Below are positions 1-4,269 of a stretch of 33,144 bases of DNA, one piece after another. The translations under genes were made by a program, and so were the position numbers. Position 1 is the stretch's first letter, and every line of letters begins with the position of its first letter. The notes under the pieces are model-generated. The model was not told where the DNA came from. It saw nothing but the letters and a program-made list of their open reading frames with translations, and made no database searches. The stretch is from positions 1-33,144 of the forward strand of contig RECV01000164.1 in assembly GCA_007693845.1 (NCBI GenBank), read 5' to 3'. Origin of the DNA: Phycisphaerales bacterium (GTDB taxonomy: Bacteria; Planctomycetota; Phycisphaerae; Phycisphaerales; SM1A02).

Positions 1-157
1 TTCGGCGCAGGGCGGACTTGATCCGCCGCACGACCTCATCGCCCGCATCGATATCAACGCCGGAGGCGGCGTAGGTCATCCCCTCGCCCGCAGCGGATGC
101 GGCCGCATCAGGATTCGCCCCCGCGCCCGTTTTCGACTTGTCAGCAGTGCTCGGCAT
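1..157 (-). CDS. purM: Phosphoribosylformylglycinamidine cyclo-ligase (AIR synthetase), N-terminal part
   Basis: Only the first 52 codons lie in the window; the rest is beyond position 1. The reverse strand starts at ATG 155-157, runs through a 26-residue low-complexity leader rich in Ala, Gly and Ser, and then reads MTYAASGVDIDAGDEVVRRI. This matches the conserved N-terminus of PurM (typically MTYKDAGVDIDAG). PurM is the cytoplasmic ATP-dependent enzyme that closes the imidazole ring to give aminoimidazole ribonucleotide in purine synthesis. The ATG before the leader was chosen because a -10-like TACACT sits 6 nt upstream; the internal ATG at the start of the conserved block is the alternative. 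The first 19 or so codons and the promoter are duplicated about 2.2 kb to the right, next to a foreign-looking gene. Identification is from the start motif alone but that motif is distinctive. Confidence 0.85.
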   Translation of the reverse strand, partial: MPSTADKSKTGAGANPDAAASAAGEGMTYAASGVDIDAGDEVVRRIKSALRR

Positions 158-176
158 GTGGGCAGTGTAGCGGAGA
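102..176. repeat. 75-bp direct repeat, copy 1 (purM 5' end and promoter)
   Basis: This stretch matches 2292-2366 with an offset of 2190 bp and 5 mismatches. The 45 bp at 132-176 are identical to 2322-2366. It covers the first 19 codons of purM plus the upstream -10 box. Together the copies bracket the tssB-tssC fusion gene. This could be an att-like duplication left by an integrated element or a partial tandem duplication. Confidence 0.9.
164..169 (-). promoter_or_regulatory. Putative -10 box of purM (leaderless arrangement)
   Basis: On the minus strand TACACT is followed by exactly 6 nt and then the purM ATG, so transcription would start at or next to the start codon. The same hexamer is preserved in the second copy of the direct repeat (2354-2359). 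No convincing -35 box is seen. Inference from spacing. Confidence 0.45.
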
Positions 177-274: not shown

Positions 275-2092
275 TCAGCGACTCGCTACATCAACGTCGA
301 TCTCGATCTGTACCGGCTCCGCTAACTCGGTGATGCCCAACAATGGCTTGAGCGTTGCAACCACACGACACTTACGAGCACGTGCTGACGTTTTATGGAT
401 TTGAATGTGTGCGTAGGTCAGTATCCAGCCGGATTTTCTCATGTATTGATCCTTATTGATCGCTTGTTCATCACAGAACACGTGATTAGCCACCCAGTTG
501 TTCAGGTACTCCTCAGTATCTTCGGTATTCATCCCTTCCCACAACTTGTCTTGGCAGATTGCCCTGATGTATTGAGCGCACCTTGATATTGCCATGATAT
601 AAGGGAGTGTTATCTTGATATGATCATCCGATGGTGATGTTGTACCTGTTTTGTGAACTACATTGCCAACATTGCGAGCCGAGCACGGCGGCTGACACAG
701 GGCGGAGTTGCCGACATCTAGTTCAAACAAAGGCGACAGTCCCATACTTCTTAGCTTATCGCCCAGTTGTTCTGCATTCATCGTAGCTGCCGGGGGCTGC
801 ATCGGTCCGCTTGCGGCATAGCCACTGGCTTCAACACCCAATAGGCCACCCGTTTCACAACCGCGCGCTTCTTCAACAAAGTGCGTACACCATCCGGTCT
901 TGCAGTATGCCGTAGCAACCGCAGATGCAATCACGTAGGCACCGTTCATCCATGAGTATTGGCCCAACGGCTTGCGGCGGCTATTCAAACCCCTCTCCTC
1001 ATTCAATTCTTCACTCGTACATAACCTTTGTTCGCTTTGTGATTTGCAGCGACCCGAGATACGATTCGATACGCGAGGCAGCGTCACTACGCAGAAACGT
1101 GAGCTTTCGCGCTGGCGAAATGACTTCCATTGCTGGATTCGCGGGCTAGCACGATCACTCATACAGCCTGAGTGCCCCTCTGTGAAATGTTGTAATGACG
1201 CAAACAAATCCCATTGTTGGTTCAGTAATTTCGCCGATGCGCCGGCCAGCACAGGGCAATACAATGATTTCCCTACCTCAGATATCTTTTCGAGCATTGC
1301 AATATCATCACATGCGCCCCCAAACTCAAAGTCTACAACGATCATACTGCATGCGCCATTGCCTTTCCACCGCCTGCCACCTGTTCCTTGCTGCCGCCAT
1401 TCGCCGTCATTTTGCGCCCTTTTGTAGAATGACGTATCCTCAACTCGCAAGCTCTGCAAAACATCATTCGACAATTCTTCCTTGCTGCATGGAAGGATGA
1501 GGCAGCGTGGCCTTGGCAATCCTGCGAACCGATTCGTGATCGATTTCATTAGATATTGTAACCCGCGCCAGCAAGATTCGAGTCGGCAAAAATCCTCATG
1601 TTTTTTAATCGATTCGACCTGCCTCCATATATCAACATCTGTCCGATGTGTTGCGGACCGGTCACTTTCGTTACGGATCGAGGCAGGAGTTGCTGCGCCG
1701 GGCAAAGGCGCCTTCCCGATAGAGTTCGGCGAGGAGTGCAGATAGCCAAGTTGTTCGGCGAGTCTTTCTGGCTGGAAGTCATCGCATGAGCAAAAAGATA
1801 AGTGTACTTGTAGCGAGGACCCGTCATTGGCGAATTCGTTTGGCACGGAGATTAGCAACTCCGGCTGCACAGCCTGCACAGCGATGTCAAAATTGTCCGG
1901 GTCTACATCAATCCATCCACGGTCTTGAAATGGCTGTGCGCCTGAGCGCCGAGTACCGCATACGTCACTCAGAACTCCGATGGTAAAAGGTAACTCTTGC
2001 TTAATGATCGCGTCGCCTACACAAACATCCCATGTAACTGGATCATATGCCGATCTCACTCGACCAAGAACGTGTCGTTGGCTTTTGCTCAT
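275..2092 (-). CDS. Fused type VI secretion contractile sheath protein (TssB-TssC)
   Basis: The 605-residue protein carries both sheath subunits in one chain. Residues about 20-120 match TssB/VipA: ELPFTIGVLSDVCG, then WIDVDPDNFDIAVQAVQPEL, then DDFQPERLAEQL. From about 150 it follows TssC/VipB: CWRGLQYLMKSI, FYKRAQND, LYCPVLAGASAKLL, the pair WKSFRQRESSRF and VVTLPRV, WMNGAYVIASA, TGWCTHF, and near the C-terminus a block with AQYIRAICQDKLW and EEYLNNWV. The family normally has separate proteins of about 165 and 495 residues that form the contractile tail sheath. The total here is a little short. The ATG at 2090-2092 was chosen because GAAAGG lies 9 nt upstream; a TTG 9 nt earlier would touch that RBS. 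No other T6SS or phage-tail gene is visible. G+C is clearly lower than in neighbours, suggesting transfer. The fusion is seen directly; function as a working sheath is inference. Confidence 0.82.
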   Translation of the reverse strand: MSKSQRHVLGRVRSAYDPVTWDVCVGDAIIKQELPFTIGVLSDVCGTRRSGAQPFQDRGWIDVDPDNFDIAVQAVQPELLISVPNEFANDGSSLQVHLSFCSCDDFQPERLAEQLGYLHSSPNSIGKAPLPGAATPASIRNESDRSATHRTDVDIWRQVESIKKHEDFCRLESCWRGLQYLMKSITNRFAGLPRPRCLILPCSKEELSNDVLQSLRVEDTSFYKRAQNDGEWRQQGTGGRRWKGNGACSMIVVDFEFGGACDDIAMLEKISEVGKSLYCPVLAGASAKLLNQQWDLFASLQHFTEGHSGCMSDRASPRIQQWKSFRQRESSRFCVVTLPRVSNRISGRCKSQSEQRLCTSEELNEERGLNSRRKPLGQYSWMNGAYVIASAVATAYCKTGWCTHFVEEARGCETGGLLGVEASGYAASGPMQPPAATMNAEQLGDKLRSMGLSPLFELDVGNSALCQPPCSARNVGNVVHKTGTTSPSDDHIKITLPYIMAISRCAQYIRAICQDKLWEGMNTEDTEEYLNNWVANHVFCDEQAINKDQYMRKSGWILTYAHIQIHKTSARARKCRVVATLKPLLGITELAEPVQIEIDVDVASR

Positions 2093-2173
2093 AGTAGACA
2101 ACCTTTCTCACACAGATTTCTACCCACGCATGTGCTCGACACCGCAGATGAAGAGCAGCTGGCATTACCCGGC

Positions 2174-2272: not shown

Positions 2273-2347
2273 TTACCACATCGGTCCGCGCGCCGCATCA
2301 GGACTCGCCCTCTCACCCGTCTTCGACTTGTCAGCAGTGCTCGGCAT
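2273..2347 (-). pseudogene. Duplicated purM 5' fragment
   Basis: The second copy of the purM start (ATG at 2345-2347) encodes MPSTADKSKTG like the real gene, with several substitutions, for about 19 codons. It then diverges and stops at TAA after 24 codons. None of the conserved PurM core is present, so it cannot be an enzyme. It keeps its own -10 box (TACACT, 2354-2359) and lies next to what may be the original upstream DNA of purM. It is most simply the leftover of an insertion or duplication that placed the sheath gene here. Confidence 0.7.
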
Positions 2348-2366
2348 GTGGGCAGTGTAGCGGAGA
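2292..2366. repeat. 75-bp direct repeat, copy 2
   Basis: This is the partner of 102-176. All 5 mismatches lie at 2303-2321, and the 45 bp at 2322-2366 are identical between copies. The match breaks abruptly on both sides, so this is a bounded duplication rather than diffuse similarity. Confidence 0.9.
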
Positions 2367-3155: not shown

Positions 3156-3277
3156 TTCTTTCGGGATCGCGCTCCGCCCCGTTCGTCATGCCCAAACGCT
3201 TCGCCTCCCTCATCCATCGTGGCATATCACGATTTTATCGGAGCGGCGATGGGCGCAGTCGCATCGTCACGATGCGT

Positions 3278-3521
3278 ACTCGCGATTTCAGCGCCTCAAC
3301 TCGCTGTTTCAACGGTTGAACTCGCGATTTCAATGGCTGAACTCGCTAGATCAACGGCTCAACTCGCTAGTTCAATCCCTGAACTCGCGATCTCAACGAC
3401 TGAACTCGCTAGCGCAACGACTGAACTTGCTATCTCAACGGCTGAACTCGCTAGCCCAACCATTGAACTCGCTATCTCAACCCCTGAACTCGCTAGCTCA
3501 ACGCCTGAACTTGTGATTTCC
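3278..3521 (+). repeat. 21-bp tandem repeat array, 11 full units plus a partial
   Basis: Units start at 3278 and recur every 21 bp to 3508, followed by a decayed partial unit. The consensus is ACTCGCTAG then CTCAACGGCTGA. Units differ from one another at a few positions, so the array is not freshly expanded. Because 21 is a multiple of 3, several frames stay open. One plus frame (from 3136) reads a heptad of QRLNSLA type with Leu at spacing 3-4, as in coiled coils. Another plus frame (from 3219) reads ELASSTP-type heptads, and one minus frame is open too. None has a convincing start or RBS, so I do not call a gene. The flank from 3156 to 3277 holds nothing else I can identify. Confidence 0.9.
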
Positions 3522-3588
3522 CGGCCGGCCCGCCCGTCATGACCGCCCGTCACGGCAGATTCGGCGAATCTCCCGGTATGCCAACGGT

Positions 3589-3843
3589 CTAAGCGGCATC
3601 GACATCCACCTCGATGCTGGTGATGCGCGGCACGATCGTCGCAGTCGGCGGCTCGAAGTACAACTCCAGCGCCTCGCGCAGATTTGCCAATGCTTCGTCT
3701 TCAGTCTTGCCGTGGCTGGCGACATCGGCCTCAGCGCACTGGGCGATAAACCACTCATCCTCCTGCCAGACTCTCGCAGTGAATTGTCGTTCATAGCGCG
3801 GCTCCTTGAACGCAAGCACATCCGCTCGGCTCACGCCGCACAA
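3589..3843 (-). CDS. HicB-like antitoxin-family protein, apparently without HicA
   Basis: The 84-residue frame contains the HicB/UPF0150 fold pattern: FTARVWQEDEWFIAQCAEAD, then HGKTEDEALANLREALELY. In HicAB systems HicB binds and inhibits the RNA-targeting toxin HicA and often represses its own operon. There is no HicA frame (short basic protein with a GSH motif) on either side. No C-terminal DNA-binding domain is present. The start is uncertain: TTG at 3843, or GTG at 3834 or 3819, all without clear RBS. It sits between a repeat array and a dead transposase, so it is probably a solitary or orphaned member. Family assignment is fairly safe; activity is doubtful. Confidence 0.65.
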   Translation of the reverse strand: MCGVSRADVLAFKEPRYERQFTARVWQEDEWFIAQCAEADVASHGKTEDEALANLREALELYFEPPTATIVPRITSIEVDVDAA

Positions 3844-3899
3844 TCGCTCCCACCTTCGGCACCGTGCATCTGCTCGCGCAACTGCTTCTGGATCGCGCT

Positions 3900-4172
3900 T
3901 CAGTCCGGTTCGTCATATCCACACGCTTCACACAGCCGAATCTCAGAAGGAATCGAGAACAACGCCCGCAGCAGAAGCGCCTTGATCAGACACTCCGGCG
4001 GGATGCCCACGCGGGCGGTCTTGCCGTAGGCCTTGTTGAAGTCGCGGTTCATCTTCGCCAGCACGCGATCGCACTATTGCTTGATCGGGCGAAGGGGATG
4101 AACTTCGGGAACGCGTTTTTTGATATTGAACGCGACGAACATGGGCTGCTGACGATCGACGTTGCCACGCAT
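3900..4172 (-). pseudogene. Broken IS5/IS4-type transposase, N-terminal remnant
   Basis: From ATG 4170-4172 the frame reads MRGNVDRQQPMFVAFN, then VPEVHPLRPIK, a TAG stop at codon 33, then CDRVLAKMNRDFNKAYGK, GIPPECLIKALLLRALFSI and PSEIRLCE, before ending at TGA 3900-3902. This order (basic start, HPLR motif, GRP-like region, PPE.LLKALLLQ.LFS.RSE.QL) is the N-terminal domain of a common DDE transposase group. The catalytic domain is missing and the internal stop disables the rest. No terminal inverted repeats are recognisable. It is a fossil of a mobile element. Confidence 0.75.
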
Positions 4173-4269
4173 GCTGGCCTCCATGCCTTCAATGGACGGG
4201 AACGAACAACATACCATGTACCGACACGTCCCACGCGAGTGGCTTGGTGACCAGCTGGAGCCGGGGGGA

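What the first reader, a model, noticed from the sequence alone, without database searches (positions are those of the whole stretch)
275..2092. Orphan single-chain TssB-TssC sheath fusion
Both contractile sheath subunits of a type VI-like system are encoded as one polypeptide in the order TssB then TssC. No tube (Hcp), baseplate, ATPase (ClpV) or spike gene is visible nearby. The gene is lower in G+C than its neighbours. In normal T6SS the two proteins are separate and the interface is made by strand exchange; a covalent link would fix stoichiometry at 1:1. It could be a divergent secretion or tail-like machine with parts elsewhere, or a moron-like captured gene.
Basis: partly seen in the sequence, partly recalled or inferred. 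Interest (0 to 1): 0.7.

Follow-up and report, generated by a model that had tools for sequence, protein, structure and literature searches.

The report
Fused, diverged T6SS sheath-pair duplicate
A planctomycete genome that already has a normal type VI secretion system also carries, elsewhere, a fast-evolving copy of its two sheath genes fused into one gene without the part thought to serve sheath recycling; such fusions turn out to have arisen several times in this phylum, including one conserved family found here.

Summary
The fusion is real, but on the MINUS strand (ATG 2092 to stop 275; 605 aa). TssB (PF05591), TssC N-domain (PF05943) and TssC C-domain (PF18945) all match above Pfam cut-offs in one frame; stricter NCBIfam equivalog cut-offs are missed. 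It is not a sheath gene without a machine: the same genome has a T6SS on other contigs (tssA-B-C1-C2-tagJ-E-F-G-clpV-hcp-vgrG, tssK). The gene is best read as a strongly diverged duplicate of that system's own tssB-tssC1, fused by loss of the junction: the TssB C-terminal helix and TssC N-terminal helices (domain 3, the ClpV/inter-subunit bundle) are gone while the strand-exchange arms remain, one chain as in pyocin sheaths. Own TssC1 is nearest in trees and alone shares a two-residue insertion. Frame and fold core were kept by selection (no neutral simulation stayed stop-free; second codon positions constrained, third saturated), but two thirds of invariant TssC residues are lost, so recent loss of function is possible. 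Fusions recur in Planctomycetota: inside T6SS loci (L055, L060, L135), as orphans (L134, perhaps L137), and as one conserved orphan clade in Phycisphaerales (about 21 genomes). Function unproven.

The parts
275..2092 (-). tssBC fusion gene, 605 codons (ATG at 2092; a TTG at 2101 would add 3 residues)
1730..2092 (-). TssB part, residues 1-121: N-terminal arm strand and core; breaks off inside the conserved C-terminal helix
   Evidence: Pfam PF05591 positions 11-110 of 155; alignment; PDB TssB chains match to about residue 116-118
1649..1729 (-). linker, residues 122-148, no homology; stands where the rest of the TssB helix and the TssC N-terminal helices (domain 3) would be
   Evidence: low pLDDT at 124-141
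719..1642 (-). TssC sheath N-terminal domain (VipB, PF05943); its last part (residues from about 402) is very divergent and not modelled with confidence
1193..1231 (-). KLLNQQWDLFASL (residues 288-300): two-residue insertion and N-x-x-W-x-x-F pattern shared only with the genome's own TssC1 (KLFNPDWESFEEL)
320..625 (-). TssC C-terminal gpW/gp25-like domain (VipB_2, PF18945), with the C-terminal exchange strand
2102..2109 (-). possible Shine-Dalgarno GAGAAAGG, 9 nt before the ATG
   Evidence: read from the sequence
2292..2366 (-). upstream copy of the purM 5' end (75 bp, 93% to 102-176), followed by an early stop
102..176 (-). purM 5' end with start codon at 157; the other copy of the 75-bp repeat flanking the insert
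   Evidence: homology to a purM (TIGR00878) protein
1..157 (-). purM N-terminus, cut by the contig end

Best explanation
Identity: a diverged duplicate of this genome's own T6SS tssB-tssC1 pair, now in front of purM and fused into one frame by loss of the junction (end of TssB, stop/start, start of TssC). The lost part is domain 3, the three-helix bundle that carries the ClpV-contact region, so the product is a single-chain, two-domain sheath protomer laid out like the sheath protein of R-type pyocins, with both strand-exchange arms kept. Selection kept the frame and hydrophobic core for most of its history while most residues that are invariant in working TssC changed. Proposed action (inference, not shown): an accessory protomer that docks on or caps the cell's own TssBC1 sheath through its arms but cannot be pulled off by ClpV, thus altering sheath length or turnover. 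It is not likely to be the main sheath of any machine.
For: Domain content in one frame. TssB beyond about position 115 and TssC before about position 78 are missing against 24-25 homologues each, which matches domain 3 as described for TssB1C1 (TssB1 117-133, TssC1 39-54 and 66-86) and absent from R2 pyocin (PMC5807055). Own T6SS present. TssC tree: own TssC1 is sister (84/78) within the well-supported clade that holds own TssC1 (99/94); again nearest with other fusions left out. Two-residue insertion shared with own TssC1 and with no other TssC segment listed. A parallel in G390: its orphan fusion L134 groups with G390's own TssC1. Selection: 0 of 160 neutral runs taken to 50% or 38% retained identity stayed stop-free, mean 12-16 stops; no compensated frameshifts; differences from the own TssC1 at codon positions 1/2/3 are 0.59/0.43/0.74 (5' part) where random pairing gives 0.74/0.74/0.75; 93/124 always-hydrophobic TssC columns stay hydrophobic. 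The AF2 model significantly matches only T6SS sheath proteins in the PDB (E 5e-14 to 7e-10).
Against: The end branch is extreme (3.4 changes per site; 6.0 without other fusions), so placement can suffer from long-branch effects, and the TssB tree does not resolve it. Only 43/114 invariant TssC columns are kept against 75-76 of about 115 in own TssC2 and L060; Cys is 4.0% against 1.2%; codon-position G+C is flattened. Residues 402-495 are not modelled. No close relative was found, so conservation of this particular gene cannot be shown. No evidence of expression; no promoter above chance. Docking and ClpV resistance are untested.
Confidence: 0.5

Rival explanations
1. A dying duplicate: the same origin, but function has recently been lost and the frame is open only because too little time has passed.
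For: Most invariant residues lost, high Cys, codon usage drifted towards even base composition; it lies in a stretch of broken genes (truncated purM copy, transposase and HicB-like fragments); restricted to this genome. At 10% neutral divergence 6 of 80 runs were still stop-free.
Against: The bulk of the divergence cannot be neutral; no stop and no frameshift in 605 codons.
Confidence: 0.3
2. Sheath subunit of a separate, non-recycling T6SS-like or pyocin-like machine whose other parts lie elsewhere or in the missing 10% of the assembly.
For: Same domain-3-less layout as L135, which sits in an operon with tssE, tssF and tssG.
Against: Only one TssF and one TssK found in the genome; the gene groups with that T6SS's own TssC1; most invariant TssC residues are lost.
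Confidence: 0.07
3. Cargo of a phage or mobile element (moron).
For: Flanked by a 75-bp direct repeat of the purM 5' end; the same site is variable in a congener, which lacks the gene; transposase remnants upstream.
Against: No PHROG match, no IMG/VR relative, no viral fold match; phage records give only ordinary split pairs; no integrase in the insert; descent from own TssC1. A mobile element may still have moved it.
Confidence: 0.05
4. Assembly or binning error that joined two genes.
For: Metagenome-assembled genome with 303 contigs; the gene is close to a contig end and flanked by a repeat with 43 exact shared bases.
Against: The frame lies wholly inside the contig, the TssB/TssC junction is not at a repeat, about 100 residues are missing with the frame intact, and the sequence is far from the own tssB/tssC1 copies.
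Confidence: 0.03

Closest known systems
TssB/VipA (PF05591) and TssC/VipB (PF05943, PF18945) of the ImpE/TagJ-bearing T6SS, in particular this genome's own tssB-tssC1
   Same: Both proteins homologous; strand-exchange arms and core kept; shared two-residue insertion with own TssC1
   Different: One chain; domain 3 absent; 24-28% identity in TssC; outside the cluster
R-type pyocin sheath protein (and phage sheaths, single polypeptide)
   Same: Single chain of domains 1 and 2, no domain 3 (description in PMC5807055)
   Different: Derived from T6SS genes; no sequence match, and the fold search lists only a chance-level phage P1 hit (E 0.83)
Full-length TssB-TssC fusions in planctomycete T6SS loci: L055/G380 (721 aa), L060/G312 (649 aa)
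   Same: TssB then TssC in one frame
   Different: Keep domain 3; sit near tssF/tssG or tssE/tssF; ordinary divergence
Domain-3-less fusion L135/G208 (506 aa) followed by tssE-tssF-tssG; L137/G219 (472 aa, runs off the contig)
   Same: TssB core joined almost directly to TssC position about 78-82; C-terminal domain kept
   Different: Elsewhere in the tree; L135 is in a T6SS operon
Orphan fusion clade of Phycisphaerales found here (P0002/L091, L093-L112)
   Same: Single-chain TssB-TssC outside the T6SS cluster
   Different: Keeps a domain 3 region, lacks PF18945; well conserved; one clade (100/100) apart from the window gene

Membership tests
T6SS sheath pair TssB/TssC | Match to PF05591, PF05943 and PF18945 over cut-off | tested here: met
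T6SS sheath pair TssB/TssC | NCBIfam equivalog cut-offs TIGR03355 (271.5) and TIGR03358 (97.25) | tested here: not met
   168.5 and 77.2 bits
T6SS sheath pair TssB/TssC | Two separate adjacent genes in a T6SS cluster | tested here: not met
   one frame, no T6SS neighbours; 80 of 80 canonical loci have two genes
T6SS sheath pair TssB/TssC | TssB helix and TssC N-terminal helices (domain 3) for TssB-TssC binding and ClpV recycling | tested here: not met
   alignments; roles from PMC3840085, PMC4239648, PMC5807055
T6SS sheath pair TssB/TssC | Forms a contractile sheath around Hcp | not testable with these tools
   needs expression and microscopy
Single-chain pyocin/phage-type sheath | One polypeptide with domains 1 and 2 only | tested here: inconclusive
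   layout by homology fits; model low-confidence at 402-495
Single-chain pyocin/phage-type sheath | Encoded with tube, baseplate and spike genes of a tail | tested here: not met
Phycisphaerales orphan fusion clade | Groups in the L091-L133 clade and lacks PF18945 | tested here: not met

The most novel reading that the evidence does not exclude
Planctomycetota repeatedly turn duplicated T6SS sheath genes into single-chain proteins that act as dedicated non-recyclable accessory sheath parts (caps, anchors or length controls); the window gene is a young case (domains 1 and 2 only) and the conserved Phycisphaerales clade an established one (domains 2 and 3 only).
Probability: 0.2. Interest if true: 0.75.

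Novelty: new variant of a known kind. Interest (0 to 1): 0.52.

Why it matters
T6SS sheaths differ from phage and pyocin sheaths in being made of two chains and in having a recycling domain. Natural single-chain fusions, some with just that domain removed and one in a T6SS operon without a recognised neighbouring clpV, are ready-made material for testing why the split exists and whether recycling needs domain 3. No report of a natural TssB-TssC fusion was found in the open-access library searched, and no family model covers the conserved orphan clade as such.

Tried and rejected
Compensated frameshifts as the cause of the garbled TssC segments: a frameshift-aware profile alignment found none even at a low penalty. 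Relatives of the exact protein: none in GTDB contigs or IMG/VR by peptide patterns; plasmid and phage records give two-piece matches at 20-30% identity, i.e. ordinary separate tssB/tssC. Defence system: no PADLOC match. Membership in the Phycisphaerales orphan clade: rejected by tree and domains. TssB tree: too short to place the gene. Mixed TssB/TssC alignments for the fold: a truncated version aligned worse, so the first was used and its N-terminal columns carry noise. Proteins from genome-search loci were not sent to the fold predictor because its rule does not list them. PF06761 (IcmF-related) gave no match in the own genome, so TssM is unproven.

Full report
OBSERVATION. The feature is real but on the minus strand. 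The plus strand of 275-2092 is broken by many stops; the minus strand is one frame of 605 codons from ATG 2092 (608 from a TTG at 2101) to a stop ending at 275. Pfam finds T6SS_VipA, VipB and VipB_2 in order, each over its cut-off; the NCBIfam equivalogs match below theirs. A possible ribosome site GAGAAAGG lies 9 nt before the ATG. A chance frame of that length has probability about 5e-14.

GENOME. The window is the whole contig C29 of a genome in 303 contigs, 90% complete, probably a metagenome assembly. A relative of the same order carries the record name Phycisphaeraceae (G933 contig C283 has the length and gene coordinates of L160), so this is taken as Phycisphaerales. The genome has a T6SS on C99 and C232: ImpA-type tssA, tssB, tssC1 (split by the contig ends), a second tssC (C2), ImpE/tagJ, gp25-like tssE, tssF, tssG, a clpV-like AAA+ gene, hcp, vgrG, and tssK on C138. 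TssM was not found with one model. The two congeners searched have no sheath gene but are incomplete.

LOCUS. The gene lies between purM (start codon at 157, contig ends inside it; homology to a TIGR00878 protein) and a stretch of broken genes. A 75-bp copy of the purM 5' end (93%) stands on each side of the insert (102-176, 2292-2366). In congener G002 the purM start is followed by different DNA and then by the same membrane-protein region (85%), without the fusion. The spot is thus variable and the fusion is an insertion seen in this lineage only. How it got there is not shown.

ANATOMY. Against 24 TssB and 25 TssC sequences, the protein keeps TssB to about position 115 and TssC from about position 78; the rest of the TssB C-terminal helix and the TssC N-terminal helices are missing, replaced by a linker of about 27 residues. 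In the P. aeruginosa sheath these helices form domain 3, which R2 pyocin lacks and which is thought to serve ClpV recycling; the arms that link subunits are the TssB N-terminal and TssC C-terminal strands (PMC5807055). Both arms are present here. The TssB helix and the TssC N-terminal region are required for TssB-TssC binding in E. coli (PMC3840085), a need that a covalent link could bypass (inference). In most other loci tssB and tssC overlap or nearly touch, so one in-frame deletion would suffice for fusion (inference). The AF2 model (mean pLDDT 66.8, pTM 0.60) is confident for most of 30-120, 150-230, 250-300, 380-400 and 500-540 and poor at 402-495; its nine significant PDB matches are all T6SS TssC-type proteins.

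ORIGIN. In a 61-row TssC tree the fusion falls in the clade that holds the own TssC1 (99/94) and next to it (84/78), with an end branch of 3.38 against 0.24; without other fusions own TssC1 is still nearest. Independent of the tree, the fusion (KLLNQQWDLFASL) and own TssC1 (KLFNPDWESFEEL) share a two-residue insertion and N-x-x-W pattern seen in none of the other segments listed (36 planctomycete rows and at least 74 others; the pattern did not pick up every row). TssB alone does not resolve. The low G+C is shared with the own T6SS genes. The simplest reading is duplication of tssB-tssC1 followed by fusion and fast change.

SELECTION. Neutral mutation of two intact stand-ins to 50% and 38% retained identity gave 12-16 stops on average and no stop-free run in 160; at 10% change 6 of 80 were stop-free. 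No frameshift improved the alignment. Differences from the own genes are 0.52-0.59, 0.43-0.48 and 0.70-0.75 at codon positions 1, 2 and 3, where random pairing gives 0.74-0.75 at each: third positions are saturated, second are not. Always-hydrophobic columns stay hydrophobic in 30/35 (TssB) and 93/124 (TssC). So frame and fold were under selection for most of the divergence. Yet only 43/114 invariant TssC columns are kept (75-76 of about 115 in L060 and own TssC2), Cys is 4.0% (TssC family 1.2%) and codon usage has drifted. Recent decay cannot be excluded.

OTHER FUSIONS. None of 80 loci from GTDB contigs is fused (a sample biased to canonical sequences). In Planctomycetota I found full-length fusions in T6SS loci (L055/G380 721 aa; L056/G290 with a frameshift; L060/G312 649 aa); a domain-3-less fusion followed by tssE-tssF-tssG (L135/G208, 506 aa; its TssB half falls below the Pfam threshold) and another at a contig end (L137/G219); an orphan with a shortened junction and no C-domain (L134/G390) that groups with its own genome's TssC1; and one clade (100/100) of orphan fusions in about 21 Phycisphaerales genomes, up to 45% identical to P0002, lacking PF18945 in P0002 and in the family alignment. 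In 12 of 13 contexts read no separate tssB/tssC lies near; in G058 the T6SS is about 9 kb away. Of 11 such genomes tested 10 have TssF; the exception G033 is 79% complete. The supported branches force at least 4 changes between fused and split.

MECHANISM. Shown: fusion, loss of domain 3, retained arms and core, past selection; descent from the own sheath genes is well supported but not certain. Inferred: docking on the own sheath, resistance to ClpV, effect on length or turnover. I put the accessory reading ahead of decay, but not by much.

LITERATURE. Text searches for natural TssB-TssC or VipA-VipB fusions found none; most subscription papers and all preprints are outside the library.

Noticed in passing
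L091:8562-10226 (G033) and L093-L112, L122-L133: Conserved family of orphan single-chain TssB-TssC proteins (about 500-640 aa) in Phycisphaerales, lacking the gpW/gp25-like C-domain, mostly in genomes that also have a T6SS; no dedicated Pfam or NCBIfam model. Probably more interesting than the window gene.
   Followed up: partly
L135:2263-6672 (G208): Operon of domain-3-less single-chain sheath gene, weak gp25-like tssE, tssF and tssG; no clpV recognised in the 12 kb read: a possible non-recycling T6SS variant.
   Followed up: partly
L057:933-7955 (G427): TssC N-terminal half continues in frame into a repetitive adhesin-like protein of 2340 aa; the joint lies at a short similar motif and may be a misassembly.
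   Followed up: no
window 3236-3541: About fourteen 21-bp tandem repeats (GCGAGTTCAGCCGTTGAGATA-like) that would encode seven-residue repeats.
   Followed up: no
window 3600-4260: Remnants that look like a HicB-type antitoxin and a transposase N-terminus (named by eye); the transposase stretch recurs at the ends of contigs C193 and C34 (92-94%).
   Followed up: partly
L063:1-2314: The own T6SS has two tssC genes in tandem (tssC1, and tssC2 with a longer N-terminus), an arrangement shared with several other planctomycete families.
   Followed up: partly
L081:200-764 (G002): The same site before purM in a congener holds different DNA with a small open frame: a variable insertion spot.
   Followed up: partly
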